From contig JACVTC010000165.1 in assembly GCA_016946835.1 (NCBI GenBank), positions 1 through 42,500 of the forward strand: a stretch of DNA of 42,500 bases, in the 5' to 3' direction. This DNA is from Neocallimastix lanati (nom. inval.) (taxonomy: Eukaryota; Neocallimastigomycota; Neocallimastigomycetes; Neocallimastigales; Neocallimastigaceae). The position numbers and the translations under genes were made by a program. Numbering within the stretch: position 1 is the stretch's first letter; every line of letters starts with the position of its first letter. Shown one piece after another: positions 11,049 to 40,754 of the stretch. The notes under the pieces were generated by a model. The model saw only the letters and a list, made by a program, of their open reading frames with translations, was not told the origin of the DNA and searched no databases.

Positions 11049-11050
<2 letters not shown>

Positions 11051-11290: not shown

Positions 11291-11292
11291 AA

Positions 11293-16455: not shown

Positions 16456-16494
<39 letters not shown>

Positions 16495-16530
16495 TTTCAA
16501 ATGCACTTTTCACCTACATGTATTTTTTAT

Positions 16531-20420: not shown

Positions 20421-20425
20421 CATTT
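20421..20425. repeat. Target-site duplication of LTR-alpha, left copy (CATTT)
   Basis: CATTT precedes the TG start of LTR-alpha at 20426. The same five bases follow its CA end at 40649-40653. Confidence 0.85.
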
Positions 20426-20770
20426 TGTAATAATTCTATTAAGAACTAACTCAAAATAGAATTATTAACTACAACTTAACGACTAATTCATTAAGTTGAG
20501 AAAATAAAATAAAATAAATTTTTTTTACCTTTAATGTAGAGTTTATTATAAAATTAATTATAATAATAACACAAAATGTAAGAGAAGAATTGTTTGTATA
20601 AATTGATCTTAAAAATATGTTTTTGAATAAAATATTTTTATTAATTTATTAAAGTTAAAAATATAAAAATGTTACTATTATAACTATGTTTTTTATAATA
20701 ATAACTCTTGATTTCTCAAAGAGAACTCAAGAGCCTTATTTATATTTTTTTTTATGAAAATAAGGTTAAA
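20426..20770 (-). mobile_element. Solo LTR-alpha, left part
   Basis: It begins with TGTAATAATT and is a diverged relative of the gypsy-3 LTR (32732-33697), including the ATAATAACTCTT block near 20705 and a TATA-like box read on the minus strand near 20745. It breaks off after GGTTAAA at 20770, where gypsy-1 starts. The rest is at 40081-40648. Removing gypsy-1 and one TTAAA gives a continuous LTR of about 913 bp. No internal gag-pol belongs to it, so it is a solo LTR left by LTR-LTR recombination. Confidence 0.88.
20766..20770. repeat. Target-site duplication of gypsy-1, left copy (TTAAA)
   Basis: TTAAA stands before the gypsy-1 LTR start at 20771 and again after its end, at 40076-40080. The two flanks join into a sequence matching the gypsy-3 LTR around 33090-33120. 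Confidence 0.9.
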
Positions 20771-21402
20771 TGTAACGAAATCTTCAGTTAGTAAAATTAG
20801 AACTTTGGTTCAATGGTTAGTTACATTGACCATGACCAATACTTCATGGATTCGATTCACACCTCAACTCATTTTGCATAAATAATTATTTTATTAATTA
20901 TTAATAATATCTTCTTGAATATTCTTTCTGTATAAAATTATAGAAAGTTAAAGATTCTTTCGGTTCGTAATTCAACCGAAATGAATTTAGAAATTCTTAT
21001 TATATAAATTATTTTATTCTTTTTTGATAAGATTCATTTTCATCAATTAAAATCTATATTCTAGAAACTTTACATTATTAATTATTACAAACATATTTCT
21101 AAATATTTCTTTAAAATTATTTTTACATGTTAAAACTGTTTTTCCGTTAAAAGTATAAATAGTGCGAACTTCACGAATGAAAATATTTTTCTTCGTGCTT
21201 TTATTAATAATAATTAACGTATAAGTAATTCGAAATATTACCTTGTTGATTAATATTAATAATTATTTTAAATTTTATAATTAATAAAAAATATTTCTAA
21301 TAAAACGAATTATTTATACAGATAGTGTAAACCTATTGAGTTTTCTCCTTTCTGTGTTTCTATATCTCATCCCGCCTTTACAATAGAAGCACCTCCGTTA
21401 CA
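20771..21402 (+). repeat. Gypsy-1 5' LTR
   Basis: 632 bp, begins TGTAACG and ends GTTACA. It carries a TATAAATA box at 21154-21161. The predicted transcript start is near 21196, at a GTGCTTTTAT block complementary to the primer site. A tRNA-like block lies at 20799-20871. Confidence 0.93.
20799..20871 (+). promoter_or_regulatory. tRNA-like block with A and B boxes inside the gypsy-1 LTR
   Basis: 20806-20816 reads TGGTTCAATGG, which fits the Pol III A box (the tRNA-Ser of this window has TGGCGGAGTGG). 20849-20858 reads GATTCGATTC, close to the B-box core GGTTCGANTC. The spacing is typical of a tRNA gene. ACTTTGG and TGGTTA are shared with the tRNA-Ser gene at 40669. The ends do not pair into an acceptor stem, so it is not a working tRNA. 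It may be a degenerate tRNA or a SINE-like head captured by the LTR. The second copy is at 39472-39544. Confidence 0.55.
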
Positions 21403-25754: not shown

Positions 25755-26076
25755 AATTAAAACTTGAAAATGAATCTTCACTTTATTAATATCAAACTTA
25801 TATTAATTTATTAATATCAATATTACTAAATATTATATTATTAAATATTATTAATATTCATGTATTCTTATTATATTTTATATTCATGTAACTTTATTAA
25901 TATCATGTAATTTTATTCAAAAAAAAAAAGTTCGTACTATAAAATGGTTAATTAATTATTTTATTTTATTATATTTTATTTTATTTTAGTTTAGTTTAGT
26001 TTAGTTTGCTTAATTTTAGTATAAGTTATGCCTAACTGTTAGATTCGTCTGGTATCCGAATCCTGGAGGCGGACCA
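25755..26076 (+). other. Gypsy-1 3' region with polypurine tract
   Basis: The AT-rich 3' non-coding part includes repeated ATCATGTAA/TTCATGTA words and a short TTTAG repeat (25984-26006). The purine-rich GGAGGCGGACCA at 26065-26076 directly precedes the start of the 3' LTR (TGTA at 26077-26080). It is the likely polypurine primer for plus-strand synthesis. Gypsy-2 is inserted right here. Confidence 0.75.
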
Positions 26077-26080
26077 TGTA
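26076..26080. repeat. Target-site duplication of gypsy-2, left copy (ATGTA)
   Basis: ATGTA before the gypsy-2 LTR at 26081 is repeated after it at 32715-32719. Joining the flanks restores the junction between the gypsy-1 internal region and its 3' LTR. Confidence 0.92.
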
Positions 26081-27020
26081 TGTAAAAATAAAATAATAGC
26101 TTAGGTCGGCGAGGACAGACTATAATTTATTTTACACTATTTTATTATATCAACACTATAATTAATTATTAACTAAAACACTAAAACTAAAAAAACTAAT
26201 TTAATTTTTTGTTTTATAAAAAAATCCTTTTATTAATATTTCTTATTTGTTGAATTTAACTATTCTAAAATCAACAATCACTTAACTGGGTACCGTAGGG
26301 TCCTTTACCGGAAAGCCTACTAGCAGTTAAGATTTTAAAATAAAATTTAAAATAAAACTTGTTTTATAAAAGATAACTATTCTAATAATAGTTATAATAC
26401 TAATTAATAAAATATAAAATTTGTACTATCTATCTTATTTATAATATTTCCTATACTATTCTATTTTCTAACTAAACTATACTAATCTATACTATTTTCC
26501 AACTATCGTTCAATAGTTGAAAATTAACTCTTTTTATACTTTTTGAAAATTAAAATTTAAATTGAATAGATTGTAATAAACTAACTAAAATATTATTATA
26601 TATTTGTAATTACATTTAATAATAAATTACATGAATTTTTATGAGTTATTTTAATATAAAAACTATTTAAAACTATCTAATATTTCTAAAATAAATAAAC
26701 AAAACGGCAAGTTTTTGTAAACGAACGGAAAAGGCAATTTTTCTTTGATTATTTTAATTTAACTAATTTATGACTAATTATTTTTAATTTACAAGTTTCA
26801 TGACTAATTATTTTTAATTTACAAAGTTTCATGATTCAAAGTGAGTAATAATGATGTAAATTCTCCAAATAATTTAGTCATACATTTTTGAGAAAATTAA
26901 TTAAATTAATAATTTGGAATACATTTAAATTTATATTAAAAATTTGGAAAACATTTTTATCCACAATAATTTACATTACATTACATTTAAATATGTATTC
27001 AAATTATTAAATATTTTACA
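26081..27020 (-). repeat. Gypsy-2 3' LTR
   Basis: 940 bp, TG...CA ends. On the minus strand it has TATAAAAA about 34 bp before the predicted transcript start AGTTGGAAAAT (complement of 26494-26504). A CAACTAT/ATAGTTG inverted repeat surrounds that start. Confidence 0.93.
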
Positions 27021-27053
27021 TGCCCCTCTGTTTAAGTCGAGCCCCTGAGCGAC

Positions 27054-30000
27054 TTATAATCTAGAAGGAACTCTATTTGTTTTATTGAACTCTTGAACTA
27101 ATTGAGGATCAGTGATTTCATCTTCAGACAACCAAGTACATTCAGTAGCTGGAAGTCCTTTCCATAACATAAAGTAAAAAGGTTTATTGTTAACAACTTT
27201 AGCGGCAACAATCTTCAAAGGTTCCTTTCCTTCAGTATCAGTAGCGATCGAAGTAATTCGAGTATTAGTACTTGCACTTGATTCATCAAATTCTCTTTCA
27301 TTGTAAGGTTCTAGGTTTGAAATATGGAAAACATTATGACATTTAATAGTATCAGGCAATTCTAATTTATAAGAAACAGGGCCTGTTTTTTCAATAATTT
27401 TAAAAGGACCGAGTTTTCTGTTAGTCAATTTAGAAGGACCTTTTGGAAGTAAGTCTGGACGCTTTAACCAAACTTTATCACCTACTTTTAATTTTGGTCC
27501 TACAATTCTTAAATGATCTGCATATCTCTTATATCTTTCCTTAGCTTTTTCTAAATTTTTCTTGAGGAATTGCATGTTTTTCCTTATTTGTTCAACATGG
27601 TCAATGGTACTTGTTCTTCTGCTATCAGCAGGTATAACTGGATTGAATTTTGGATTAAAACCATTATTTGAGAAGAATGGTGTCTGATTAGTCGATTGTT
27701 GTAATGTGTTATTATATGCGAATTCAGCATAAGGAAGAATGTCCATCCAGTTATTTTTTCTTTTGTTAATATAGCACCTTAAAAATTGTTCTAATATACC
27801 ATTAACTCGTTCAGTTTGACCATCTGTTTGAGGGTGATGTGCTGTTGACAAATTTTGACGAATATCTAATAGACTGCATAATCGTGTCCAAAATTCCGAG
27901 GTAAATTGAGAACCCCTATCCGAAACAATATCATCTGGAAGGCCGTGTAAGCGAAAGATTTCACGAAAGAAAACATCTGCAGCGATAACAGCGGTAGGAA
28001 GGTTTCTAAATGGGATAAAATGAGCCATTTTAGTTAATCTGTCTACTATAACCATAATTACTGATTTGTCTCTCGATTTAGGTAAATCAGTGATGAAATC
28101 CATTGAGACATATGACCATGGTCTTTTTGGAGTAGGGAGCGGTTGAAGTAATCCATATGGTTTATGACGATCATCTTTAGCTTGACAACAAATCTTACAA
28201 GAAGCAATGTACTTTACGATATCATCCGTCATTCTGAACCAAACAAAATTTCTACTAATAACTTCTTTAGTTTTAAGAATTCCAAAGTGGCCTTGCACAG
28301 GATTATCATGGTGAATAGCAATGATAATATTTCTCATCTTCTTTGGAACGAAAATTAAACCCTTATATAATAATAAACCTTCTTCGTCAATAGTAAAGTC
28401 TTTCATTTTATTTTTATATTTATTATTAGGAGTAGATTCTCCTTTTTTGATCTTGATTAATTCTTGTATGACTTCATCATCTTTAATTTCTTTTATCAAT
28501 TCATCTTTTAAGTTCCCTTGAATTGCAACTAAACATAAATCTTCTGTAGCTTCTTGTATTGTAAGACAAGCTGAAGTTTCTTTTTCATCATCTATTTCTT
28601 GATTTTCATAATCTGGTCTTCTCGAAAAAGCATCTGGTTTTCCACCTTCTTTTCCTGGTCTATATTGTATTTTGTAATCAAATCGAGATAAGAATAAGTT
28701 CCATCTTATTTGACGTTGAGATAACAACTCAGGTTTACGTGGAAAAGTTAAATTTTTATGATCGGTATAAATTGTAAATTGATGCTTAGCCCTTTCTAAG
28801 TAATGTCTCCATTCTTGTAACGCACACTTGACAGCTAATAATTCCTTGTCATATATTGGATAATTCTTTTCAGATTTTGTTAAACCTCTTGAATAATAAC
28901 AAATTGGATGTAATGCGTTTGTATATTTTTGTCTTTGAGATAACACAGCACCGATTGCAAAATTACTTGCATCTGTCTCTACTATAAACGGTAATTCTGG
29001 ATCTGCATGAACAAGTATTGGTTCTTTTGTAAAGAGTTTCTTTAAAGTTTCGAATGCGACAGAACATTCTTCAGTCCATTCATATTTAACATCTTTTCTT
29101 GTTAAGTTGTGTAACGGCTTAGCAATTTTAGCAAAGTTTGGGATGAATCTTCGGTAGTAGTTGCATAAACCTATAAATGATTGTACTTCTTTAACTGTAG
29201 TTGGTATTGGCCATTCTAAGATAGACTTAACTTTATCCGGATCCATGGAAATTCCTTGATTGGATATTACGTGCCCCAAGAATGTTGTTTTCTGGACTTC
29301 AAATTCACACTTACTTAATTTTGCATAAAGTCCACTTTCTTGCAAACGTTTAAGAATCTTCTTCACATGCACGCGATGTTCTTCTAGGGTGTTTGAGTAT
29401 ATAAGTATATCATCAATATAAGCGAAAGCGAATTCATCTAAGTATTCCCCTAATACATCATTAATAAAGTGTTGGAAAGTAGCAGGTGCATTCTTTAATC
29501 CAAAGGGCATTACTCGGTATTCATAATGACCGTATCTTGTTCTGAAAGCGGTTTTATACTCATCTCCTTTACGAATTCTTACTAGATTATATGCTGATTT
29601 TAAATCTAACTTAGTAAAATACTTAGCTTCTCTCAATCTGTCAAAAAGCTCGGTGATTAAAGGGAGTGGATAGGAGTCCCTTATAGTATTTTCATTAAGT
29701 CTTCGATAATCGACACAAAGTCTTAAACTTCCATCCTTTTTTCTAACGAATAAAATTGGAGCACCAGCAGGAGATGTTGAAGGTCTAATGAAGCCTTTTT
29801 CTAAATTTTCTTTGATATATTCTTTTAAAGCTTCACGTTCTTCTTCCGTTAATGGATATAATGGTCCATAAAATAAGTCTACATCATCCTTTAATCTAAT
29901 TTTACAGTCGTATGGACGATGTGGTGGTAATTCGTTACACTCTTGTTCATCAAACACATTTTTAAATTTCTCATATTGTTTTGGTATTCTTTCCAAACTT

Positions 30001-31679
30001 TTATTTTCTTTAACACTTTCATTATTATAATCACATTTAATAACACTTTTATCTTTATTTTCATTTTTTAAAACATAACAGAAAGCATAATTTTCAAATT
30101 TTCCTTTATTTAATTCTTTTCTTTTAATACATTTTTCTTTTTTAACTAAGGCTTTTTTCATAATAGCCTTTATATTACGTGATTTTTTACTACATAATTT
30201 ATTTTTATTATCGACTAATTTTTTAACATCATTATTATCTAAACTATCTAATACATTATTATAATTATTAATAATTTCTCTAGCTAATTGTATCTTACTT
30301 CGGCGGATTTCATCTTTTTTCTTCTTTTCTTCAGTTGTTCTTCTCATAATATCTTCAGCGGTGGCACAACAATTTCTCTTGCAGTATTGGGAACTGAATC
30401 TGATATTACCTTTATCAAATTCAATTGTTGGGCAATGCTTCTTCAACCATGGATTTCCTAAAATAACCGAAATTCCTTTTGGTAAACTATAAATGTAAAA
30501 TTGAATGGTTTCGATATGTTGACCCATGACCATAGTTAATGGAATGGTTTCATAACGAATTGTTCCATTTCCGTTAAATCCGATAACGTTTTTCTCATGG
30601 CGGATTCGTTGTACTGGGATCTGGTATTTATCGGCGGTAGCTCTATCCATAATATTAAGATCTGAGCCAGTATCTAGAATTGCGGACATAATAAAACCAT
30701 TTTTGTACTTAAAAACAACATTGTAAGTGTGAGCTAAACTTTTCTCGCTCAATTTAATCTGTAAGATCTTTTCTCTTCTTCTAATTTTGTCCTGTTGCTT
30801 GGGACAGTTTTCCTTTAAGTGGCTTGTGCTCTTACATATAAAACACTTCTTCGGTTTGTTTGACCTCTTTGGTGAAGAATCCCTGTAATTTTGGCTACTT
30901 CGGTAATTATTTTGGTAACGACTTGATCCTAAATCCCTACGAAAAGGTCTAATTCTTCTTTGATCTATATCCATTGGGTCATTTCCGTTAACACGACGAT
31001 CTTCTTCAGCATTAGCAGCTACAACATTAATTAGTTCATTAATTCTTCTAATTCTAGGATAAATTAGTTTGGTTCTTTCTTTTTCTCTTGTTGGTAAACC
31101 CTCAATGAAAAAATGGATTTTAGCTTCGTCATTAAATGATGAATCTCTGGCTATTTTCTCGAACTGATTGCAGTATTCGGCTATTGTTCTAAATTGTTGG
31201 CTACGTATCTTGGTAAGTCGACTGTTCGCGACATCTGAACTCGCACAGGATTTGTAACGTTGTTGCAAAGCGTCAATAAAATTCTCGTAATTTTCCAATA
31301 GTGGACTTTCTTCTTTAACTAGATCAGCAAACCATTCAGCAGCGTTTCCCTCCAAATAACTACTTATAATATCAATCTTGAATTCGTCATCAGCAGCAGC
31401 TTCTTCGTCTAAATTGTACTTAAAATATCGGTTGATTTGACCAAGGAAGGCTGGTAGTTCGTTTCTTCTTCCGGAGAATGCTTTTGGTTTCGGAATGAGG
31501 TGTGCCCTGGTATTGACGTTATTACCAACCTCATTTTCTATTTCCATGGAGCTGGCTTCAGAGGCTGCGTCAAAGTCTCCCCTAGCTCCTGGATGTTGAT
31601 TGTTGATATTTATGTAATTCATCTTATTATTATTATTTATTAAACTATAAATTAAACTATAAAGTATTACTAAATCCAC
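27054..31679 (-). CDS. Gypsy-2 Gag-Pol polyprotein
   Basis: 1541 codons, uninterrupted. The retrotransposon gag domain spans about 63-230. A CX2CX4HX4C knuckle lies at Cys279, Cys282, His287 and Cys292, and the aspartic protease has DTGS at 336-339. The reverse transcriptase has YIDD at 754-757, and RNase H has the catalytic Asp region near 903 (ETDAS). The integrase has an HHCC finger at about 1110-1160 and a D1194, D1254, E1290 catalytic triad (DX59DX35E). It is followed by a GPY/F module and a C-terminal chromodomain-like segment (FYFMLWKGLPATECTWL) that lacks the usual first aromatic context. The first 19 residues are hydrophobic and Asn-rich and look like leader. Met20 (start codon at 31620-31622) is a likely alternative start. 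Gag and Pol share one frame, so their ratio must be set without frameshifting. Confidence 0.96.
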   Translation of the reverse strand: MDLVILYSLIYSLINNNNKMNYININNQHPGARGDFDAASEASSMEIENEVGNNVNTRAHLIPKPKAFSGRRNELPAFLGQINRYFKYNLDEEAAADDEFKIDIISSYLEGNAAEWFADLVKEESPLLENYENFIDALQQRYKSCASSDVANSRLTKIRSQQFRTIAEYCNQFEKIARDSSFNDEAKIHFFIEGLPTREKERTKLIYPRIRRINELINVVAANAEEDRRVNGNDPMDIDQRRIRPFRRDLGSSRYQNNYRSSQNYRDSSPKRSNKPKKCFICKSTSHLKENCPKQQDKIRRREKILQIKLSEKSLAHTYNVVFKYKNGFIMSAILDTGSDLNIMDRATADKYQIPVQRIRHEKNVIGFNGNGTIRYETIPLTMVMGQHIETIQFYIYSLPKGISVILGNPWLKKHCPTIEFDKGNIRFSSQYCKRNCCATAEDIMRRTTEEKKKKDEIRRSKIQLAREIINNYNNVLDSLDNNDVKKLVDNKNKLCSKKSRNIKAIMKKALVKKEKCIKRKELNKGKFENYAFCYVLKNENKDKSVIKCDYNNESVKENKSLERIPKQYEKFKNVFDEQECNELPPHRPYDCKIRLKDDVDLFYGPLYPLTEEEREALKEYIKENLEKGFIRPSTSPAGAPILFVRKKDGSLRLCVDYRRLNENTIRDSYPLPLITELFDRLREAKYFTKLDLKSAYNLVRIRKGDEYKTAFRTRYGHYEYRVMPFGLKNAPATFQHFINDVLGEYLDEFAFAYIDDILIYSNTLEEHRVHVKKILKRLQESGLYAKLSKCEFEVQKTTFLGHVISNQGISMDPDKVKSILEWPIPTTVKEVQSFIGLCNYYRRFIPNFAKIAKPLHNLTRKDVKYEWTEECSVAFETLKKLFTKEPILVHADPELPFIVETDASNFAIGAVLSQRQKYTNALHPICYYSRGLTKSEKNYPIYDKELLAVKCALQEWRHYLERAKHQFTIYTDHKNLTFPRKPELLSQRQIRWNLFLSRFDYKIQYRPGKEGGKPDAFSRRPDYENQEIDDEKETSACLTIQEATEDLCLVAIQGNLKDELIKEIKDDEVIQELIKIKKGESTPNNKYKNKMKDFTIDEEGLLLYKGLIFVPKKMRNIIIAIHHDNPVQGHFGILKTKEVISRNFVWFRMTDDIVKYIASCKICCQAKDDRHKPYGLLQPLPTPKRPWSYVSMDFITDLPKSRDKSVIMVIVDRLTKMAHFIPFRNLPTAVIAADVFFREIFRLHGLPDDIVSDRGSQFTSEFWTRLCSLLDIRQNLSTAHHPQTDGQTERVNGILEQFLRCYINKRKNNWMDILPYAEFAYNNTLQQSTNQTPFFSNNGFNPKFNPVIPADSRRTSTIDHVEQIRKNMQFLKKNLEKAKERYKRYADHLRIVGPKLKVGDKVWLKRPDLLPKGPSKLTNRKLGPFKIIEKTGPVSYKLELPDTIKCHNVFHISNLEPYNEREFDESSASTNTRITSIATDTEGKEPLKIVAAKVVNNKPFYFMLWKGLPATECTWLSEDEITDPQLVQEFNKTNRVPSRL

Positions 31680-31763
31680 TTTATAATTATTATTTCAAAA
31701 AAAAAAATTTTTTATACTATTACTAGTCTATCCTACACAAAGGTAAACTATACTAATCTAACG

Positions 31764-31774
31764 AGTTGGAAAAT
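31764..31774 (-). promoter_or_regulatory. Gypsy-2 primer binding site, self-priming type
   Basis: The 11 bases next to the 5' LTR, read on the minus strand as ATTTTCCAACT, are exactly complementary to AGTTGGAAAAT in the LTR (complement of 32188-32198). That block begins about 34 bp after a TATAAAAA box and is therefore the predicted mRNA 5' end. This is the Tf1/sushi arrangement. Confidence 0.75.
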
Positions 31775-32714
31775 TGTAAAAATAAAATAATAGCTTAGGT
31801 CGGCGAGGACAGACTATAATTTATTTTACACTATTTTATTATATCAACACTATAATTAATTATTAACTAAAACACTAAAACTAAAAAAACTAATTTAATT
31901 TTTTGTTTTATAAAAAAATCCTTTTATTAATATTTCTTATTTGTTGAATTTAACTATTCTAAAATCAACAATCACTTAACTGGGTACCGTAGGGTCCTTT
32001 ACCGGAAAGCCTACTAGCAGTTAAGATTTTAAAATAAAATTTAAAATAAAACTTGTTTTATAAAAGATAACTATTCTAATAATAGTTATAATACTAATTA
32101 ATAAAATATAAAATTTGTACTATCTATCTTATTTATAATATTTCCTATACTATTCTATTTTCTAACTAAACTATACTAATCTATACTATTTTCCAACTAT
32201 CGTTCAATAGTTGAAAATTAACTCTTTTTATACTTTTTGAAAATTAAAATTTAAATTGAATAGATTGTAATAAACTAACTAAAATATTATTATATATTTG
32301 TAATTACATTTAATAATAAATTACATGAATTTTTATGAGTTATTTTAATATAAAAACTATTTAAAACTATCTAATATTTCTAAAATAAATAAACAAAACG
32401 GCAAGTTTTTGTAAACGAACGGAAAAGGCAATTTTTCTTTGATTATTTTAATTTAACTAATTTATGACTAATTATTTTTAATTTACAAGTTTCATGACTA
32501 ATTATTTTTAATTTACAAAGTTTCATGATTCAAAGTGAGTAATAATGATGTAAATTCTCCAAATAATTTAGTCATACATTTTTGAGAAAATTAATTAAAT
32601 TAATAATTTGGAATACATTTAAATTTATATTAAAAATTTGGAAAACATTTTTATCCACAATAATTTACATTACATTACATTTAAATATGTATTCAAATTA
32701 TTAAATATTTTACA
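31775..32714 (-). repeat. Gypsy-2 5' LTR (promoter copy)
   Basis: 940 bp, same sequence as 26081-27020 by eye. It drives transcription leftwards. The predicted start is at 32198 on the minus strand. Confidence 0.93.
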
Positions 32715-32731
32715 ATGTAACGAAATCTTCA
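32715..32731 (+). repeat. Short piece of the gypsy-1 3' LTR between gypsy-2 and gypsy-3
   Basis: 32715-32719 is the second ATGTA duplication of gypsy-2. 32716-32731 is the first 16 bp of the gypsy-1 LTR. 32727-32731 (CTTCA) is the left target duplication of gypsy-3. Two elements are thus parted by only these bases. Confidence 0.92.
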
Positions 32732-33697
32732 TGTAATAATTTAATTATAAAATTAATTAGAATTAAATTATTAACTACAACTTAATAATAACTAAATAAT
32801 AATTATTATTAAATTGAGAAAACAAAAAAAAGATAAATATACTTATCTTCTATAAGAGAGAGTTTATTATAACTAATTATAATAAACTAATAACACAAAA
32901 TTGTCAAAGAGAAAAGATTATTTTATTTTATTTTTTTTTTTTTTTAAATTTGTTTTTTATTAAAACTTACTTTATTAAAATAGAAATATAAAAATTTTAT
33001 TAATGTTATTACTATATTATAATTGTTATAATAATAACTCTTGATTTCTCAAAGAGAATTCAAGAGCTTTATTTATACTTTTTTGAAAAATAAGGTTAAA
33101 TTAAAAAATGTTTTCTAATCTTAACAAATCTCTTATCTAGGAAAAGATTAGAGAGAAAAACCTAGATAAGATTTTTGATCGATATTCTATCCATATCGAT
33201 CATCGTATCAATTAGGTAAAACCAATTACTTTTAAAAAGTGATTGGGAAAAACCCTAATTGACCGATTAGCTAATCTAATTTAATTGATCGAAAATAAAA
33301 GAATAAAATAATAAAAGATATTTCGACCATAAAATCATAAATTTACAAATAAGGAAAATAACATAATAATGATATTAATAAACAAAATACAGAATACATT
33401 ATTAAGTACATATTAGAATACATAATATATTTGTTTACAATTTAATTAAATAAATAAACTAAGACTAATAAATTTAATAATTAAATATATAATTAAATAA
33501 ACTATAATTATTTATAAATGTATAAATAATAATTAAATAAATTTGTTGTATTAAATTAATGATTATTTAATATTGAGTTTAATAAATTATTAATAATATT
33601 TAAATGAATAAATATTATATAATTAAATAAAGTTATAATTATAACTTAACTAAGAAAATATAATTATTTTATTTAAAAATAATTATAGATTCTTACA
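32732..33697 (-). repeat. Gypsy-3 3' LTR
   Basis: 966 bp with TG...CA ends. On the minus strand, TATAAATA (complement of 33070-33077) lies 35 bp before AAGAGTTATTAT (complement of 33031-33042), the predicted transcript start. Confidence 0.93.
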
Positions 33698-33706
33698 TTG
33701 CTCCTT

Positions 33707-36421
33707 TTACGATGATGGCTCTTTCAATTCTTTATTCCGCTCTGTATAAGGCTCCAATTGTGAGATATGAAATACCGGATGAAGATGTAAGTTTTCTGGA
33801 AGTTCCAAGCGGTAATTCATTCTTTCCCCCTTTTCGATAATTTTAAATGGACCAAGATACTGAGAAGATAGCTTTTTGGACGGTTCATTTGTAAAATAAT
33901 ATCTTTTAAGCATAACCAAGTCATTAACTTTGAAGTCAGGGCCTATAGATTTTTTATTATCAGCATATTTCTTAAAATCTTCTTTGGCTTTTATTAAGTG
34001 TTGCCGGAGGGCATTAAAGTGTGACGACCAGTCTCTAGTAAGGATAGAAGCTGTGTCTCTTAGTAAGACAGGAGGGGAGTCAATAACACAATTAGGATCG
34101 AAACCATAGTTAGCATGAAAAGGAGTTTGGCCAATTGATTTATGGATGGAGTTATTATAAGACATTTCACATAAGGGAAGATAATAGCACCATTCATTCT
34201 GGGCGGAAGAACAATAACAACGAAGATATTGTTCAATAACAGCATTGGCACGTTCCACTTGACCATTTGATTGCTGATGATGGGCCGTTGCTAATCTTGG
34301 TTTGGCTCTAATAGCATCACATAAAGAGGTCCAGAATTGGGAGGAGAATTGAGAGCCGTGGTCGGAAACAATAACTTTTGGAAAACCATGGTGTTTAAAG
34401 ACTTGGAAGAGCAGTAATTTTGCGGTTAGGTCGGCGGAAGGAACGTCGGAGCAGGGCACTAAATGGACCATTTTTGTTAAATGATCAGAAACAATCATGA
34501 TGCATGTGCAGTCTTGCGAAGAAGGCAGAGAGACTATAAAATCCACGCCAATTACTTCCCAGGGTTTTGTAGGAATGGGAAGTGGTATTAGCTTACCATA
34601 TGGCTTATGTCTGCGAATCTTACTTCGGGAACAGACATTGCACGAAAGAACATAGTTAGAAACATCTTTCTTCATGTTTGGCCACCAGTAGAACCTTTTA
34701 AGTTTTTCAAAGGTCCTTTCTATCCCTTGGTGGCCGCTAGTAGGCGCATCATGGAAGGATTTTAAAATCCATGCCCTGAGACTAGATGGAACAATAATTC
34801 TTTTTTGGAAATGAAGAATTCCCTCGACGAGAGTAAATAGAGAACTATTTAGTTTTTTCGACTGATCTCTTAATTTAGAAAGGATATTTTGACAATATTG
34901 GTCTTCTTTCTGTGCTTTAATAAGTTTACTTATATTGTCGCTAGTAGCACAACAAAAAGCATTCTTATTAATTAAGGATTGTTGTTCCACGGGATGTGTG
35001 GATTTATAATCTGGTCTCCTGGATAAAGCATCAGGCTTTCCACTTTTTGAGCCAGCTCTATACGCAATCCTATAGTCGAATTTAGACAGGAAAAGGCTCC
35101 AACGAATTTGTCGTTGGTTTAAATGTTGTGGTTTTTTAAAGTATAGCAGATTCTTATGATCTGTTATTACTTGAACTGGGAACTTGGCACCTTCAAGATG
35201 ATGTCTCCAGGTTTCAAATGCAGTAATAATAGCAAGAAGCTCTTTATCATAGATAGTATAATTAGCTTCTGCTTTATTAAGGGATCTGGAGTGAAATGCC
35301 ACAGGATGCAATTGATTATCTTCACTAGATACCTGAGAAAGTATACATCCGACTGCAAAATCACTTGCATCGGTTTCAACTATAAATTCTTTATCAGGAT
35401 CAGGAAATATTAAAAAATCATCAGCTTTAAAAGAGTCCTTTAACTTTTGAAAAGCATCTTCAGCTGATTTATCCCAGATAAAAGGATTTTCCTTTTTTAA
35501 AAGTTTGCGAAGGGGTTCCATGTTTTTTGCAAAGTCTTTTATAAATTTTCTATAGAAATTACATAATCCAAGGAAACTTTGCAATTCTTTAACATTTTTA
35601 GGACTTGGCCAATCGAGTACTGATTTGACCTTATTTTTATCCATAGTTAGCCCTTTATTGGAAACTGTGAAGCCTAAGAATGTGGTTTCAGTTACATGAA
35701 ACTCACATTTCTCTAATTTAGCATATAATCCATTATCAATAAGAATTTTTAAAACAGTTCTTACATGGTTAATATGCTCTTTTAAGGATTTGGAATAGAT
35801 AATTATGTCATCAAGGTAAACTCTAACAAAAATACCAATACAGTCGTTAAGTATATCATGAATGAAACGTTGGAAAACGGAAGGCGCGTTTCTAAGCCCG
35901 AAAGGCATTACGAGATATTCGAAATGCCCTAAAGGAGTTCTAAACGCTGTAAGATATTCATGCCCTTCTTTAATTCTTATAAGGTTGTAGGCGGATCTTA
36001 AGTCAAGACGGGTAAATATCATTGCACCTTTAAAAGATTCCATTAAGTCATTTATTCTTGGAATCGGGTAACTATTACGGATTGTAATAGCATTCAAGCG
36101 TCGATAATCGACACATAATCTGAGAGTTCCATCGCGTTTCAATACAAATATAACTGGAGCACCTGCTGGTGATTTTGATTTTCGTATGAACTTTTTTCTA
36201 AGATTTTCTTGAATATACTCTTTCAAGGCTTTCATTTCCGGAACGGTAAGAGAGTAGATTGGACCGAAGAATAATTGGCCACCAGGAATAAGATCAATTG
36301 ACATATCATATTCCCTGTGTGGTGGTAACTTCTCAGCTTCATTTTTCTCAAATACTATTATGAGATCAGAATAGTATTTGTCGAGAATCTCTCTTATGCC
36401 TCGGTTTTTTCCCTTCGGAGT
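33707..36421 (-). CDS. Gypsy-3 Pol: RT, RNase H, integrase
   Basis: The Pol frame is open from 36421. The first ATG is at 36304, but Pol homology (KYYSDLIIVFEKNEAEKLPPHREYD region) begins before that ATG, so Pol is probably made by shifting from Gag. From Met at 36304 (865 codons): RT with YLDD at 163-166; RNase H with ETDAS; an integrase HHCC finger with CNVC; triad D588, D648, E684 (DX59DX35E); then a GPY/F module ending in HPVFHISQLEPY. The protein stops about 14 residues later, with no chromodomain, unlike gypsy-1. Overlap with Gag is 56 nt (36366-36421). All catalytic residues are present. Confidence 0.93.
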   Translation of the reverse strand, partial: TPKGKNRGIREILDKYYSDLIIVFEKNEAEKLPPHREYDMSIDLIPGGQLFFGPIYSLTVPEMKALKEYIQENLRKKFIRKSKSPAGAPVIFVLKRDGTLRLCVDYRRLNAITIRNSYPIPRINDLMESFKGAMIFTRLDLRSAYNLIRIKEGHEYLTAFRTPLGHFEYLVMPFGLRNAPSVFQRFIHDILNDCIGIFVRVYLDDIIIYSKSLKEHINHVRTVLKILIDNGLYAKLEKCEFHVTETTFLGFTVSNKGLTMDKNKVKSVLDWPSPKNVKELQSFLGLCNFYRKFIKDFAKNMEPLRKLLKKENPFIWDKSAEDAFQKLKDSFKADDFLIFPDPDKEFIVETDASDFAVGCILSQVSSEDNQLHPVAFHSRSLNKAEANYTIYDKELLAIITAFETWRHHLEGAKFPVQVITDHKNLLYFKKPQHLNQRQIRWSLFLSKFDYRIAYRAGSKSGKPDALSRRPDYKSTHPVEQQSLINKNAFCCATSDNISKLIKAQKEDQYCQNILSKLRDQSKKLNSSLFTLVEGILHFQKRIIVPSSLRAWILKSFHDAPTSGHQGIERTFEKLKRFYWWPNMKKDVSNYVLSCNVCSRSKIRRHKPYGKLIPLPIPTKPWEVIGVDFIVSLPSSQDCTCIMIVSDHLTKMVHLVPCSDVPSADLTAKLLLFQVFKHHGFPKVIVSDHGSQFSSQFWTSLCDAIRAKPRLATAHHQQSNGQVERANAVIEQYLRCYCSSAQNEWCYYLPLCEMSYNNSIHKSIGQTPFHANYGFDPNCVIDSPPVLLRDTASILTRDWSSHFNALRQHLIKAKEDFKKYADNKKSIGPDFKVNDLVMLKRYYFTNEPSKKLSSQYLGPFKIIEKGERMNYRLELPENLHLHPVFHISQLEPYTERNKELKEPSS

Positions 36422-37799
36422 CTATTTTCGTTGGCATAGCGGCACATAAATCGGAGTCACTCAAGTCTGAATGACAAACAGTATCTTCTGGGATTGATTC
36501 AGGAATGATAGAATCATGATCGGCATTGTTAATTGTGGGATTGTCGAACATAGTTGCAGTGAAATTAGAGTTTTGGTTTGCGAACTTGAATTTCCTTGAA
36601 GAAGGGCAATGTGAACCACAGTATTTACCTAAAAAGAATATTTTATTTTTCTTGTAATCAATGAAAGGATTATGAACTGAGAGCCAATCTCTTCCAAGAA
36701 TACCATTGATTCCTTGGAGGGCTATGTTTGCGATGCAAAATTCAAAACGTTCTGTATGGTCCATAATCTTGAGTTTAAGCGGTTTTGTAGTTTGTTTAAT
36801 GTTCATGCTTTTACTATTTGGGAGTTGAATATTAATTGGAGAGGATAAACCTAATGATGGAATTTTGTGACTATTAGCGAAATTTCTACAAATGAAACTT
36901 CTAGCAGATCCGGAGTCAATTAAAAAGTTTGTTCTAATATTTTTATCATTTATATTTAAGTAAAAGGCAGTAGTGATTGTTGGGTTTCCATTAGAAGTAT
37001 AGTTGGCTGAGAGAATGTCATTTTTAGGTTTATTTTTATTGTGAAAATGTTTCTTGTAGTTCTCGATTTTGGTGAGTTCTCTGCGCTTCTTTTGAAAGGA
37101 TTTATGATTCTTCTTGAAATTCTTAGTCTTATTCCTTAAACTACTTTCCAAATAACATTTTTTATCTATTCCAATTATAGTGTTCGTAGCTTCAAACAAG
37201 GTAGATGGTTTCTCAACCTTGTCGAATTCTTCGCGCACCTTATCCACAAGTCCTTTTCCAATAATGTCAATGAGCACTTCGTCGGGCCATCCAAGACGTC
37301 CCGCCAACCTACGGAATTCGATAGTGTATTCAGCGACACTACCAAGTTGAGATTGTTTAAGCTTCCACAATTTGTCCATAATAACGTATTTCTGCTTCCT
37401 TTCAATACCTGAATCGAAATTTTCTAACAAAAGTTTCTTGAATTTTTCAAATGTTAACTTCTTTAGAGTCCCATCAGTTAGCAAAGAGAGACCCCATCTT
37501 CTTGCAGTTCCTGTTAGTTTATTGATAACAAAGGAGTTTTTTGACTCATCATCCTTGAATGTATTTGGATGAGTCTTAATAAAGTCTTCACTATGGATAA
37601 TTATTTCCCTAATACTTGGTTGGTTTTTCACATCACTTTCTTTCTGAAGAACTCCATTTGGCGAAAAGAAGGCAGGTATGAAATCTGTAATAGCAGAGAT
37701 TAGTTTAGAAGCATTTTCGTTATACGTAATGGACTGTGAAATTGGTGATGGTGTGTCTGCTAAAGGCTCATTAATTTGAATATCACTATTGTTTTCCAT
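36366..37799 (-). CDS. Gypsy-3 Gag-protease
   Basis: 477 codons from ATG at 37797-37799, which is preceded on its own strand by a poly(A) tract of 21. A gag-like domain lies at about 70-220. A basic Lys/Arg-rich stretch follows (about 220-265) in place of a CCHC knuckle; none is visible. The protease active site reads DSGS, near residue 295. A CX2HC-like motif follows the protease (KYCGSHCPSS), as in the other elements. The frame ends with TGA at 36366-36368, after the region where Pol homology starts in the +1 frame. Confidence 0.9.
   Translation of the reverse strand: MENNSDIQINEPLADTPSPISQSITYNENASKLISAITDFIPAFFSPNGVLQKESDVKNQPSIREIIIHSEDFIKTHPNTFKDDESKNSFVINKLTGTARRWGLSLLTDGTLKKLTFEKFKKLLLENFDSGIERKQKYVIMDKLWKLKQSQLGSVAEYTIEFRRLAGRLGWPDEVLIDIIGKGLVDKVREEFDKVEKPSTLFEATNTIIGIDKKCYLESSLRNKTKNFKKNHKSFQKKRRELTKIENYKKHFHNKNKPKNDILSANYTSNGNPTITTAFYLNINDKNIRTNFLIDSGSARSFICRNFANSHKIPSLGLSSPINIQLPNSKSMNIKQTTKPLKLKIMDHTERFEFCIANIALQGINGILGRDWLSVHNPFIDYKKNKIFFLGKYCGSHCPSSRKFKFANQNSNFTATMFDNPTINNADHDSIIPESIPEDTVCHSDLSDSDLCAAMPTKIDSEGKKPRHKRDSRQILF
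36398..36404 (-). promoter_or_regulatory. Candidate +1 frameshift site CCG-AGG-C between gypsy-3 gag and pol
   Basis: In the gag frame the minus strand reads CCG AGG C inside the 56-nt overlap, and a +1 slip gives CGA GGC in the Pol frame. Ty1 uses CUU AGG C, where a slow AGG codon allows a +1 slip. A run of six A (complement of 36405-36410) lies just before it. A one-base loss in that run is the alternative explanation. Confidence 0.45.
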
Positions 37800-37904
37800 T
37801 TTTTTTTTTTTTTTTTTTTTACCTAGTTTTATTAAGTTATGTGAAAAATTATAATTAGTGTAGATTTAAAATTTTGTAATATTTCTAATAAATTATGTTT
37901 ATCT

Positions 37905-37938
<34 letters not shown>

Positions 37939-38208
37939 TATATATATATCTATTTACACAATATATATTATTTGTTTTATTTATTTATATATTATAGTGA
38001 TTTTATATACGTCATGTATTCATTTATATATAGTAATATATTTATTAAAAGTATGTATTTATCCATCCATTAATATATAATAGTACAAATATATAATTTT
38101 TTTTTTTTTCTTTTTTTTTTTGCTTAATTTCTAGACTATTCTATATATATCGTTTTATTGTAATTATTCTATTCTAATATATTGTTTTAATTTATTATTA
38201 TTTTATGT

Positions 38209-38242
<34 letters not shown>

Positions 38243-38362
38243 TAATTTCTAGACTATTCTATATGTATCGTTTTATTGTAATTATTCTATTCTAATATAT
38301 TGTTTTAATTTATTATTTTTATATTATTTTATTATTAAAAATATATTGAAGTTTTATCTTAA

Positions 38363-38406
<44 letters not shown>

Positions 38407-38476
38407 TACTACATAATTCAATAATATATTGGTATTATTTAAAATTTTCTTTGTACTACACTAATCTATTCTAGAT
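37800..38476 (-). other. Gypsy-3 leader with poly(T) tracts and tandem duplication
   Basis: Non-coding leader between primer site and gag. It holds T tracts (plus strand) at 37800-37820, about 37909-37935, 38098-38120, 38212-38239 and 38368-38405. A block starting GCTTAATTTCTAGACTATTC occurs at 38122 and again at 38240, offset 118 bp, nearly identical over about 79 bp. Confidence 0.8.
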
Positions 38477-38488
38477 AAGAGTTATTAT
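38477..38488 (-). promoter_or_regulatory. Gypsy-3 primer binding site, self-priming type
   Basis: The 12 bases next to the 5' LTR read ATAATAACTCTT on the minus strand. They are exactly complementary to the LTR block AAGAGTTATTAT (complement of 38788-38799), which lies 35 bp after a TATAAATA box. This predicts priming by the 5' end of the element's own mRNA. Confidence 0.78.
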
Positions 38489-39454
38489 TGTAATAATTTA
38501 ATTATAAAATTAATTAGAATTAAATTATTAACTACAACTTAATAATAACTAAATAATAATTATTATTAAATTGAGAAAACAAAAAAAAGATAAATATACT
38601 TATCTTCTATAAGAGAGAGTTTATTATAACTAATTATAATAAACTAATAACACAAAATTGTCAAAGAGAAAAGATTATTTTATTTTATTTTTTTTTTTTT
38701 TTAAATTTGTTTTTTATTAAAACTTACTTTATTAAAATAGAAATATAAAAATTTTATTAATGTTATTACTATATTATAATTGTTATAATAATAACTCTTG
38801 ATTTCTCAAAGAGAATTCAAGAGCTTTATTTATACTTTTTTGAAAAATAAGGTTAAATTAAAAAATGTTTTCTAATCTTAACAAATCTCTTATCTAGGAA
38901 AAGATTAGAGAGAAAAACCTAGATAAGATTTTTGATCGATATTCTATCCATATCGATCATCGTATCAATTAGGTAAAACCAATTACTTTTAAAAAGTGAT
39001 TGGGAAAAACCCTAATTGACCGATTAGCTAATCTAATTTAATTGATCGAAAATAAAAGAATAAAATAATAAAAGATATTTCGACCATAAAATCATAAATT
39101 TACAAATAAGGAAAATAACATAATAATGATATTAATAAACAAAATACAGAATACATTATTAAGTACATATTAGAATACATAATATATTTGTTTACAATTT
39201 AATTAAATAAATAAACTAAGACTAATAAATTTAATAATTAAATATATAATTAAATAAACTATAATTATTTATAAATGTATAAATAATAATTAAATAAATT
39301 TGTTGTATTAAATTAATGATTATTTAATATTGAGTTTAATAAATTATTAATAATATTTAAATGAATAAATATTATATAATTAAATAAAGTTATAATTATA
39401 ACTTAACTAAGAAAATATAATTATTTTATTTAAAAATAATTATAGATTCTTACA
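38489..39454 (-). repeat. Gypsy-3 5' LTR (promoter copy)
   Basis: 966 bp, same as 32732-33697 by eye. TATA box at the complement of 38827-38834; predicted transcript start at 38799, running leftwards. Confidence 0.93.
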
Positions 39455-40075
39455 CTTCAGTTAGTAAAATTAGAACTTTGGTTCAATGGTTAGTTACATT
39501 GACCATGACCAATACTTCATGGATTCGATTCACACCTCAACTCATTTTGCATAAATAATTATTTTATTAATTATTAATAATATCTTCTTGAATATTCTTT
39601 CTGTATAAAATTATAGAAAGTTAAAGATTCTTTCGGTTCGTAATTCAACCGAAATGAATTTAGAAATTCTTATTATATAAATTATTTTATTCTTTTTTGA
39701 TAAGATTCATTTTCATCAATTAAAATCTATATTCTAGAAACTTTACATTATTAATTATTACAAACATATTTCTAAATATTTCTTTAAAATTATTTTTACA
39801 TGTTAAAACTGTTTTTCCGTTAAAAGTATAAATAGTGCGAACTTCACGAATGAAAATATTTTTCTTCGTGCTTTTATTAATAATAATTAACGTATAAGTA
39901 ATTCGAAATATTACCTTGTTGATTAATATTAATAATTATTTTAAATTTTATAATTAATAAAAAATATTTCTAATAAAACGAATTATTTATACAGATAGTG
40001 TAAACCTATTGAGTTTTCTCCTTTCTGTGTTTCTATATCTCATCCCGCCTTTACAATAGAAGCACCTCCGTTACA
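39455..40075 (+). repeat. Gypsy-1 3' LTR, main part
   Basis: 39455-39459 is the right CTTCA duplication of gypsy-3. 39460-40075 matches positions 17-632 of the gypsy-1 5' LTR without visible differences, including the tRNA-like block at 39472-39544. It is followed by TTAAA (40076-40080). Confidence 0.93.
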
Positions 40076-40344
40076 TTAAATAAGAAAGGGTTTTCTAATC
40101 TTAACAAATCTCTTATCTAGGAAAAGATTAGATAGAAAAACCTAGATAAGTTTTCGATCGATATTCTATCCATATCGATCATCGCATTAATTAAGTAAAA
40201 CCGATTACTTCTAAAAAGTAATTGGAAAAAATCTTAATTAACCGATTTTCCAATCTAATGATCGAAAATAAAAGAATAAAATAATAAAAGATATTTCGAT
40301 CATATAATTTATCCTTATATTAAAAATATAAAATTAAATAGTTA

Positions 40345-40452
40345 ATAAAATACAGAATACATTATAAAATACAGAATACATTATAAAATACAGAATACAT
40401 TATAAAATACAGAATACATTATAAAATACAGAATACAATACAAAATACATTA
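40345..40452. repeat. 19-bp tandem repeat in LTR-alpha, about 5.5 units
   Basis: Units of ATAAAATACAGAATACATT start at 40345, 40364, 40383, 40402 and 40421, the last ones decaying. The gypsy-3 LTR has a single copy of the core (ACAGAATACATT). Confidence 0.9.
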
Positions 40453-40610
40453 GTTACAATAGAGAATTTAGCATATTTTAAATATATTATTTAAAATTAA
40501 TTAAATAAATTTTGTTAAATTAATGAATATTTAAAATTAAAATAAATAAATTTAATAAATATTATATGTAATTAAATAAAGTTATAGTTATAATAACTTA
40601 ACTAAGAAAA

Positions 40611-40638
40611 TATAATTATTTGCTAGCAAATAATTATA
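40611..40638. repeat. Perfect 28-bp palindrome near the LTR-alpha end
   Basis: The sequence centred on TTTGCTAGCAAA reads the same on both strands over 28 bp. The gypsy-3 LTR has a broken version at this place. Confidence 0.85.
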
Positions 40639-40648
40639 GATTCTTACA

Positions 40649-40653
40649 CATTT
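40649..40653. repeat. Target-site duplication of LTR-alpha, right copy (CATTT)
   Basis: Matches 20421-20425 and lies 20 to 16 bp before the first base of the tRNA-Ser gene. Confidence 0.85.
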
Positions 40654-40668
40654 TTTGCAATGCCCAAT

Positions 40669-40750
40669 GTCACTTTGGCGGAGTGGTTAACGCGGTGGCC
40701 TGCTAAGCCATTTCCCTTTGGGAGCGCAGGTTCGAGTCCTGCAGGTGACG
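40669..40750 (+). tRNA. tRNA-Ser(GCU)
   Basis: 82 nt including discriminator G. The acceptor stem GTCACTT pairs with AGGTGAC (one G-T pair). A box TGGCGGAGTGG at 40676-40686. The anticodon stem GTGGC/GCCAT encloses loop CTGCTAA, with anticodon GCT at 40702-40704, reading AGC/AGT codons. A long variable arm (TTCCCTTTGGGAGC region) is typical of serine tRNAs. The T arm is GCAGG/CCTGC around TTCGAGT, with the B box at 40729-40739. No intron. A run of nine T follows. It is the only intact host gene I see. Confidence 0.96.
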
Positions 40751-40754
40751 GATA

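What the first reader, a model, noticed from the sequence alone, without database searches (positions are those of the whole stretch)
39455..39544. tRNA-like block in the gypsy-1 LTR as a landing site for two other retrotransposons
Gypsy-2 and gypsy-3 inserted independently only 12 bp apart, in the same orientation, at the start of the 3' LTR of gypsy-1. Relative to the start of the tRNA-like block (39472, or 20799 in the 5' LTR), the target duplications lie at about -29 to -25 (gypsy-2) and -17 to -13 (gypsy-3). LTR-alpha, a gypsy-3 relative, lies -20 to -16 from the true tRNA-Ser. Ty3 of yeast integrates at Pol III start sites through TFIIIB/TFIIIC. The inference is that the A/B boxes of the LTR recruit TFIIIC and draw Pol III-targeting elements into gypsy-1 instead of host tRNA genes, making one transposon a decoy for others.
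Basis: partly seen in the sequence, partly recalled or inferred. Interest (0 to 1): 0.85.

Follow-up and report, generated by a model that had tools for sequence, protein, structure and literature searches.

The report
A retrotransposon landing pad for others
One jumping-gene family carries a tRNA-gene-like promoter block in its ends, and other jumping genes that normally settle beside tRNA genes settle beside this block at the same fixed distances, in about half of its copies across the genome.

Summary
In the window, gypsy-2 and gypsy-3 sit at -29..-25 and -17..-13 of the A/B-box block of the gypsy-1 3' LTR, each with a perfect 5-bp duplication. Genome-wide the block has 268 copies. Only 130 keep the 29 nt upstream of it, while at a control site in the same LTR 261 of 265 keep the 28 nt upstream (Fisher 8e-46). 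Of 93 exact copies examined, 38 are cut, all 14-20 nt before the block, by about 20 different LTR ends. Far halves of such insertions were found too (87 clean junctions of 100 listed). Offsets are family-specific and agree at tRNA genes and blocks: gypsy-3 14-18 nt versus 16-17, gypsy-2 28-29 versus 29-31. Family X, the commonest invader, lies at 6 tRNA genes and 7 blocks in 40 sampled ends. The block looks like a Pol III promoter, not a tRNA: A/B boxes are kept in at least three LTR subfamilies, while no tRNA model matches them. TFIIIC/TFIIIB binding is inferred. That the block spares host tRNA genes (a true decoy) is not shown. Closest known kinds: Ty3/DGLT-A targeting; Helenus/Cassandra TRIMp3 LTRs.

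The parts
20426..20770 (.). LTR-alpha, first part (gypsy-3-like LTR, 77-79% identical where aligned), with duplication CATTT at 20421-20425
20771..21402 (+). gypsy-1 5' LTR (intact)
20799..20870 (+). tRNA-like block in the 5' LTR: A box TGGTTCAATGG from 20806 (11 of 11 to TRGYNNARNNG), B box GATTCGATTCA from 20849 (9 of 11), spacing 43, T4 66 nt after the A box start
   Evidence: no ARAGORN call
23310..25754 (+). gypsy-1 ORF of 814 aa: Gag capsid, weak protease, part of the integrase core, SH3, chromodomain; no reverse transcriptase or RNase H found
26076..26080 (+). gypsy-2 target duplication ATGTA, left copy (26077-26080 are the first bases of the gypsy-1 3' LTR)
26081..32714 (-). gypsy-2 (LTRs 26081-27020 and 31775-32714, identical); ORF 27054-31679 minus, 1541 aa, with chromodomain E 1e-7
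32715..32731 (+). gypsy-1 3' LTR fragment between the two invaders, with gypsy-2's right duplication (32715-32719) and gypsy-3's left duplication CTTCA (32727-32731)
32732..39454 (-). gypsy-3 (LTRs 32732-33697 and 38489-39454, identical); ORFs 33707-36304 and 36366-37799 minus; no chromodomain at E 0.001 or better
39455..40075 (+). rest of the gypsy-1 3' LTR, opening with gypsy-3's right duplication CTTCA
39472..39543 (+). tRNA-like block in the 3' LTR (A box 39479, B box 39522), the landing pad of the finding
40076..40648 (.). LTR-alpha, second part (opens with gypsy-1's right duplication TTAAA), followed by CATTT 40649-40653
40668..40751 (+). tRNA-Ser (GCT), the gene next to which LTR-alpha sits

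Best explanation
The first ~100 bp of the gypsy-1-family LTR hold a compact Pol III-type promoter (A box, B box, T-run). It no longer resembles a tRNA but is read by the integration machinery of several Pol III-targeting LTR retrotransposon families as if it were a tRNA gene. SHOWN: insertions cluster at family-specific distances upstream of the A box, close to the distances these families keep at real tRNA genes, in about half of the block copies. INFERRED: TFIIIC binds the A/B boxes and places TFIIIB upstream, and each family's integrase (or a partner) reads TFIIIB or an adjacent factor at its own offset (about 16 nt for gypsy-3, X and others; about 29 nt for gypsy-2). gypsy-1 itself was not found at tRNA genes (21 flanks), so it spreads such landing pads to new places. 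In the 3' LTR the pad is rarely used at -17 unless gypsy-2 has landed at -29; this fits interference from the gypsy-1 body (for example Pol II read-through), and that step is speculative.
For: (1) 268 block copies, of which 130 keep the 29 nt upstream. Control in the same LTR: 265 copies, 261 keep the 28 nt upstream; Fisher 8e-46. (2) 38 of 93 exact blocks have the LTR start cut, with an LTR end 14-20 nt before the block in all 38, about 20 different ends (recounted). (3) Far sides: 119 matches against 9 for the reversed pattern; 87 of 100 listed are clean gypsy-1 LTR starts cut at LTR positions 12-20. Some near and far sides pair on one strand 0.6-25 kb apart. (4) Offsets agree: gypsy-3 at tRNA 14-18 nt (8 flanks), at blocks 16-17 (4); gypsy-2 at tRNA 28-29 (5), at blocks 29-31 (4). 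(5) X sample of 40 ends: 6 tRNA genes (at 13, 14, 14, 15, 16 nt and one outlier at 4 nt), 7 blocks of three types. (6) A box 10-11 of 11, B box 9-11 of 11, spacing 43-44 in gypsy-1, two other LTR subfamilies (C741, C446), L181 and L016, although those two LTRs are only 65-66% identical to gypsy-1 overall. Of 14 flanks without an ARAGORN tRNA that were put to Rfam, only L196 and L200 (a CCA-bearing repeat) matched its tRNA model; the seven holding gypsy-1-type blocks did not. (7) 0 of 21 intact gypsy-1 5'/solo flanks hold a tRNA; 3 of 3 positive controls were found.
Against: No binding, chromatin or RNA data; Pol III action is inferred from where insertions fall. The window's own B box is one of the poorer ones (9 of 11). 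Uninterrupted 3' LTR junctions are almost never hit at -17 (2 of 75, possibly one locus), so the block alone is not sufficient. One X end lies only 4 nt from a tRNA gene (L195). 18 of 40 X ends lie beside other LTRs or are unclear and could not be tied to a tRNA or a block. 5 of 22 gypsy-2 loci could not be assigned, and in 4 of the 11 counted as LTR-block loci (C632/C546, C511, C7, C14) only the LTR start was seen, the block lying beyond a second insertion. Assembly redundancy inflates raw counts.
Confidence: 0.88

Rival explanations
1. The LTR start is a hotspot because of its DNA sequence or shape (for example TCTTCAGTTAG), unrelated to Pol III.
For: Insertions in gypsy-1 share the same local sequence.
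Against: The same families land at matching offsets from different tRNA genes with unrelated upstream sequence, and from blocks of LTR subfamilies whose upstream letters differ. Two families keep two different offsets at both target kinds.
Confidence: 0.05
2. A few nested loci were copied by segmental duplication or redundant assembly, giving a false hotspot.
For: Some loci share both flanks or one telling flank (C561/C231/C182; C632/C546; the C114 pair).
Against: About 20 different inserted LTR ends, family X alone at five different distances, and TSD ends at eight different LTR positions from 12 to 20. The control site shows no such loss.
Confidence: 0.03
3. Adaptive decoy: the block is kept because diverting invaders spares host tRNA genes or benefits gypsy-1.
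For: gypsy-2 loci: 11 of 22 at LTR blocks versus 5 of 22 at tRNA genes; family X 7 versus 6 of 40. A/B boxes are kept in several LTR subfamilies.
Against: Insertions at tRNA genes remain common and may be harmless. No comparison of genomes with and without the block was possible. A promoter or insulator role for gypsy-1 itself would keep the boxes equally well.
Confidence: 0.12
4. Loss of the LTR start reflects 5'-end variants made during gypsy-1 reverse transcription, not insertions.
For: Cut copies are mainly 5' or solo LTRs.
Against: LTR starts ended by another LTR start exist in similar numbers, some of them on the same strand upstream of a cut block, and the window shows both halves with perfect duplications.
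Confidence: 0.01

Closest known systems
Ty3 of Saccharomyces cerevisiae and DGLT-A of dictyostelids (Ty3/gypsy LTR elements targeting tRNA-gene upstream sites)
   Same: LTR elements a fixed short distance upstream of tRNA genes: DGLT-A about 15 bp, 13-16 bp in D. purpureum; Ty3 uses TFIIIB (PMC5006619 and PMC5911963, passages seen). gypsy-3 lies 14-18 nt and X 13-16 nt upstream, with one X outlier at 4 nt.
   Different: Here a large share of targets are promoter-like blocks inside other retrotransposons, and a second family (gypsy-2) uses a second fixed offset of about 29 nt.
TRE5-A integration at A/B-box loci without tRNA context on Dictyostelium rDNA (PMC5391098, abstract and passages seen)
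   Same: A Pol III-targeting retrotransposon inserts upstream of A/B boxes that are not tRNA genes, at tRNA-like distances.
   Different: Those sites lie in an extrachromosomal rDNA element; here they are carried by a mobile element in about 270 copies and are hit by several families.
TRIMp3: Helenus (tRNA-like), Ajax and Cassandra (5S) non-autonomous LTR elements (PMC10886601: abstract, passages and Discussion seen)
   Same: A Pol III-type promoter lies inside the LTR; conservation centres on boxes A and B; most Helenus are judged unlikely to give a functional tRNA; 5-bp duplications in fungi.
   Different: Helenus elements are short (311-1263 bp) TRIMs. gypsy-1 is a 5.3-kb (or longer) Gag- and integrase-coding Ty3/gypsy element, too long for a plausible Pol III transcript of the whole. 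The parts of the paper seen do not describe such LTRs as targets of other elements.
Chromoviruses (Skipper and other Ty3/gypsy elements with an integrase chromodomain)
   Same: gypsy-1 has a clear chromodomain (E 4.7e-18), gypsy-2 a weaker one (E 1.2e-7), gypsy-3 none at E 0.001; dictyostelid Skipper/DGLT-A show a comparable split of chromodomain and targeting (PMC5006619, abstract and passages seen).
   Different: Targeting by the chromodomain was not tested here.

Membership tests
Ty3/gypsy chromovirus (gypsy-1) | Gag, integrase and C-terminal chromodomain in Ty3-type arrangement | tested here: met
   (Ty3 Gag-Pol 7q5b E 2.5e-23 over residues 523-742; chromodomain E 4.7e-18)
Ty3/gypsy chromovirus (gypsy-1) | Own reverse transcriptase and RNase H (autonomy) | tested here: not met
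   none in the 814-aa ORF, no other gypsy-1 ORF of 250 aa or more; another copy (L215) carries about 1.75 kb more at one point, so this looks like an internal-deletion, non-autonomous form
Ty3-like Pol III-targeting element (gypsy-3) | Fixed insertion about 13-18 nt upstream of different tRNA genes | tested here: met
   eight flanks (Arg, Ala, Met, Trp x3, Glu, Thr) at 14-18 nt; the top 40 LTR matches were scored, 30 fetched
Ty3-like Pol III-targeting element (gypsy-3) | Integrase contact with TFIIIB | not testable with these tools
   needs biochemistry
Pol III-targeting element with a second offset (gypsy-2) | Fixed insertion about 28-29 nt upstream of tRNA genes | tested here: met
   five flanks (Arg, Ala, Met x3, two of them an inverted duplicate) at 28-29 nt; C390 read by eye at 29 from L075
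TRIMp3 / Helenus (gypsy-1) | A/B boxes in the LTR | tested here: met
TRIMp3 / Helenus (gypsy-1) | Short TRIM (Helenus 311-1263 bp) | tested here: not met
   about 5.3 kb between LTR starts, 814-aa ORF
Functional tRNA gene (the block) | tRNA fold or covariance match | tested here: not met
   no ARAGORN call at the blocks in the window, no Rfam tRNA match for L017, L019, L181, L183, L191, L204, L209
Active Pol III promoter (the block) | TFIIIC/TFIIIB occupancy or a Pol III transcript | not testable with these tools
   no ChIP or RNA data

The most novel reading that the evidence does not exclude
A transposon family has evolved, and keeps under selection, a Pol III-promoter mimic in its LTRs that works as a mobile landing pad. 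It redirects a large share of the genome's Pol III-targeting retrotransposons away from tRNA genes and onto itself, building nested stacks; in the 3' LTR the pad is gated, opened for -17-type invaders once a -29-type invader has cut it off from the transcribed gypsy-1 body.
Probability: 0.2. Interest if true: 0.9.

Novelty: new variant of a known kind. Interest (0 to 1): 0.78.

Why it matters
Insertion patterns here act as a natural assay of Pol III factor placement on non-tRNA DNA and show that one selfish element can create targets for others. That makes competition, decoys and niche construction among transposons testable with counts. It gives a coding LTR retrotransposon (not a TRIM) with a Pol III-type promoter in its LTR, and two Ty3/gypsy families with two different fixed offsets. 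The 3'-LTR exception is a ready natural test of whether upstream transcription blocks Pol III complexes.

Tried and rejected
Rejected: sequence hotspot, duplicated locus, 5'-end variants (see rivals). A/B-box scoring alone was rejected as evidence, because a loose A/B pair criterion finds several pairs by chance in the window. The block as a tRNA gene was rejected. gypsy-1 as itself tRNA-targeting was rejected on 21 flanks (one side and about 100 nt only).

Corrected on recount: one search placed one inserted LTR end at 12 nt and left one unplaced, because its search skipped overlapping end motifs; one search places an LTR-end motif 14-20 nt before the block in all 38 (two ends are possible at C741 and in a few others; the one farther from the block was taken, TATTA being used only where nothing else fits). 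In one search one of the 100 listed places was left out by mistake (99 used); the complete list gives the same two gypsy-1-type cases.

Led nowhere or incomplete: the Rfam tRNA search of the genome scored only 63 of 9278 candidates, 57 of them tied at the top score (the eight fetched are tRNA-Arg), so a full tRNA-gene census was not possible. The protein search placed gypsy-2 among thousands of Ty3/gypsy proteins. Its hints to the host are an Orpinomyces protein (P0056) and short unnamed metagenome contigs, so an anaerobic gut fungus is likely but not proven. The paper search for gut-fungus transposons found nothing. 5 of 22 gypsy-2 loci (C747, C151, C23, C22, C68:314003) stayed unassigned.

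Literature: the statement that I found no report of a retrotransposon LTR serving as a Pol III-type landing pad for other retrotransposons rests only (open-licence PMC papers; most subscription papers are not held).

Full report
WHAT WAS CLAIMED AND CHECKED. The window (C74:1-42500 of an unnamed 199-Mb, 762-contig genome; 26% G+C) holds three nested Ty3/gypsy-type elements. Every boundary was read directly: gypsy-1 LTRs (632 bp, 0 differences), gypsy-2 LTRs (940 bp, 0 differences), gypsy-3 LTRs (966 bp, 0 differences), each element with a perfect 5-bp duplication (TTAAA, ATGTA, CTTCA). gypsy-1 lies inside LTR-alpha, a gypsy-3-like LTR whose duplication CATTT lies 15-19 nt before tRNA-Ser. Because gypsy-2 sits further from the block than gypsy-3, gypsy-2 most likely came first; an earlier gypsy-3 would have moved the block away from the gypsy-2 site (inference).

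GENOME-WIDE TEST. The 50-mer of the block occurs 268 times with up to 3 mismatches (reversed pattern 0). Extended by the 29 nt upstream, it occurs 130 times: 138 of 268 have lost the LTR start. As a control, a 50-mer elsewhere in the same LTR occurs 265 times, and extended by 28 nt upstream 261 times: 4 of 265 lost. Fisher p = 8e-46. Copies on redundant contigs are counted as they stand in both sets.

WHERE AND BY WHAT. I fetched all 93 exact copies outside the window; copies with 1-3 mismatches were not fetched. 38 are cut, 3 carry gypsy-2 directly at the LTR start, 31 are intact 3' LTRs (polypurine tract present) and 21 are intact 5' or solo LTRs. In all 38 an LTR-end motif of the inserted element lies 14-20 nt before block base 1 (base 1 here is one base inside the A-box-aligned start). 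About 20 different LTR ends occur; family X (15 cases) uses five different distances, so these are not one copied event, although some contigs are redundant. The other halves of these insertions were sought with a pattern for an LTR start cut by another LTR start: 119 matches against 9 for the reversed pattern. Of the 100 listed, 87 are clean gypsy-1 starts ending at LTR positions 12-20, with most at 16-18, and 13 were set aside as not clean. Some near and far halves lie 0.6 to about 25 kb apart on the same strand, fitting a solo LTR, one element or stacks of elements.

FAMILY-SPECIFIC OFFSETS. gypsy-3 ends 14, 15, 16 (five times) and 18 nt from the first base of tRNA genes (eight flanks: Arg, Ala, Met, Trp, Glu, Thr) and 16-17 nt from A-box-aligned block starts (four flanks, two LTR subfamilies). 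gypsy-2 ends 28-29 nt from tRNA genes (five flanks) and 29-31 nt from block starts (four flanks, three LTR subfamilies). The 12-bp step between the two insertions in the window is therefore the normal difference between the two families. L021 and L027 (Trp), and L066 and L067 (Met), may be duplicated loci. These counts come from the 30 best LTR matches fetched per family (40 scored). Flanks without a called tRNA or a recognised block often open into what looks like another LTR, that is, stacks (by eye).

HOW OFTEN BLOCKS RATHER THAN tRNA GENES. gypsy-2: after merging obvious duplicates, the 40 scored LTR matches represent 22 loci: 11 in gypsy-1-type LTR starts (C74, C112, C632/C546, C1, C511, C231/C561/C182, C741, C446, C57, C7, C14), 5 at tRNA genes (C555, C65, C743, C114, C390), 1 at a tRNA-like repeat (C68:1420119) and 5 unassigned (partly by eye). 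In 4 of the 11 (C632/C546, C511, C7, C14) the block itself lies beyond a second insertion and was not seen. A further gypsy-2 end at a block, C79, came from the block list and is not among the 22. Family X: 40 ends were taken at even steps from the 68 of 100 listed ends that were not obvious 5' LTRs. 5 proved internal, 6 are tRNA genes (five at 13-16 nt, one at 4 nt), 7 are blocks (4 gypsy-1; L191 of the C741 subfamily; L181 and L204 of a further, probably LTR-borne, type), 4 are other repeats with A/B boxes and 18 are stacked on other LTRs or unclear (partly by eye). X has 796 ends in all, so this is a small sample of one side only.

WHAT THE BLOCK IS. A box TGGTTCAATGG fits TRGYNNARNNG 11 of 11; the B box fits GGTTCGANTCC 10 of 11 in another gypsy-1 copy (C1) and 9 of 11 in the window. 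Two further LTR subfamilies (C741, C446, 65-66% identical to gypsy-1 overall), L181 and L016 keep A boxes at 10-11 of 11, B boxes at 10-11 of 11 and spacing 43-44, with a T-run after the B box. These consensus motifs are recalled; TRRYNNARYNG and GTTCRANNC variants are quoted in PMC5391098. No tRNA was called in the block, nor did Rfam match it in seven fetched flanks. So the promoter boxes are kept while the tRNA fold is not. A motif match of the window's quality alone is not rare by chance; the insertion data carry the argument.

gypsy-1 ITSELF. 0 of 21 intact 5'/solo flanks have a tRNA within about 100 nt upstream, while 3 of 3 control flanks did. The window copy codes for Gag, a weak protease, part of the integrase, SH3 and chromodomain, but no reverse transcriptase was found. 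A longer copy matches it except for about 1.75 kb more in the middle, so the 5.3-kb form (six LTR pairs lie 5.2-5.3 kb apart) looks like a non-autonomous internal deletion.

AN EXCEPTION WORTH FOLLOWING. Uninterrupted gypsy-1 3' LTR junctions are rarely hit at -17: 2 of 75 exact junctions (C356, C573, perhaps one locus). Across subfamilies there are 15 such junctions beside 152 junction matches (up to 3 mismatches). Where gypsy-2 sits at -29 in a 3' LTR, 5 of 10 loci also carry a -17 insertion (C74, C632/C546, C231/C561/C182, C7, C14; not C112, C1, C741, C446, C57). Fisher 1e-4 against 2 of 75, 0.003 against 15 of 152 (an approximate comparison, since the two patterns differ), 0.002 with gypsy-1-type LTRs only, 3 of 6. 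The geometry puts gypsy-2 first. One reading is that the gypsy-1 body upstream (transcription, or its GC-rich tract) keeps Pol III factors off the 3' block until gypsy-2 separates them. The counts are small and the comparison was made after seeing the data.

COMPARISON WITH THE KNOWN. DGLT-A inserts about 15 bp upstream of tRNA genes, reminiscent of Ty3, and Ty3 works through TFIIIB (PMC5006619 and PMC5911963, passages seen). TRE5-A inserts at A/B-box loci that are not tRNA genes, needs the B box, and uses a lone B box at under 1% of the rate of a tRNA gene (PMC5391098, passages seen). [quoted passage not shown] Helenus, Ajax and Cassandra carry Pol III-type promoters in short LTR elements; their author argues that the autonomous partners must use Pol II and are unlikely to share long LTR stretches with them (PMC10886601, Discussion seen). 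gypsy-1 departs from that picture by being a coding 5.3-kb element. No paper in the listings was seen to describe such LTRs as landing sites for other retrotransposons; of these papers I opened four, in part.

VERDICT. The landing-site reading is strongly supported. Recruitment of TFIIIC/TFIIIB is the most likely mechanism but inferred. The decoy in the strict sense is open.

Noticed in passing
3' LTRs genome-wide (for example 26077-39460 in the window): Insertions at -17 are rare in uninterrupted gypsy-1 3' LTRs (2 of 75) but present in 5 of 10 3' LTRs that already carry gypsy-2 at -29.
   Followed up: partly
23310-25754 and L215: gypsy-1 of the window lacks a detectable reverse transcriptase/RNase H stretch; a longer family copy holds about 1.75 kb more in the middle.
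   Followed up: partly
20849-20859 and 39522-39532: The window's B box differs at two bases from the copy on C1 (GATTCGATTCA versus GGTTCGACTCA), yet both gypsy-2 and gypsy-3 landed there.
   Followed up: no
L196, L200, L072: A repeated tRNA-like unit (GCCATG...GGCATGGCACCA, CCA encoded, followed by a constant tail) is also a target of X and gypsy-2; perhaps a tRNA-derived SINE.
   Followed up: no
L188, L201: Another repeat with A/B-like boxes (TGGCTCGCTGGTCGAG...GGATCGGATCC) right beside X ends.
   Followed up: no
L075-L076 (C390): At a tRNA-Met gene, read by eye, what looks like an older LTR starts 14 nt upstream and gypsy-2 lies at 29 nt, inside that LTR: the same two offsets as in the window.
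   Followed up: partly
L001-L004, L006-L008: Seven of eight fetched tRNA-Arg loci have what looks, by eye, like another tRNA gene ending about 14-16 nt upstream, perhaps tRNA pairs; the eighth (L005) has an LTR end 13 nt upstream that resembles the one at the cut block on C97.
   Followed up: no
7449-10727 (also 1329-5762 and 12222-15587): A non-LTR-type element with reverse transcriptase and a weak endonuclease match at 7449-10724; two more long ORFs lie in window 1-17000 among direct repeats of about 75-98% identity.
   Followed up: no
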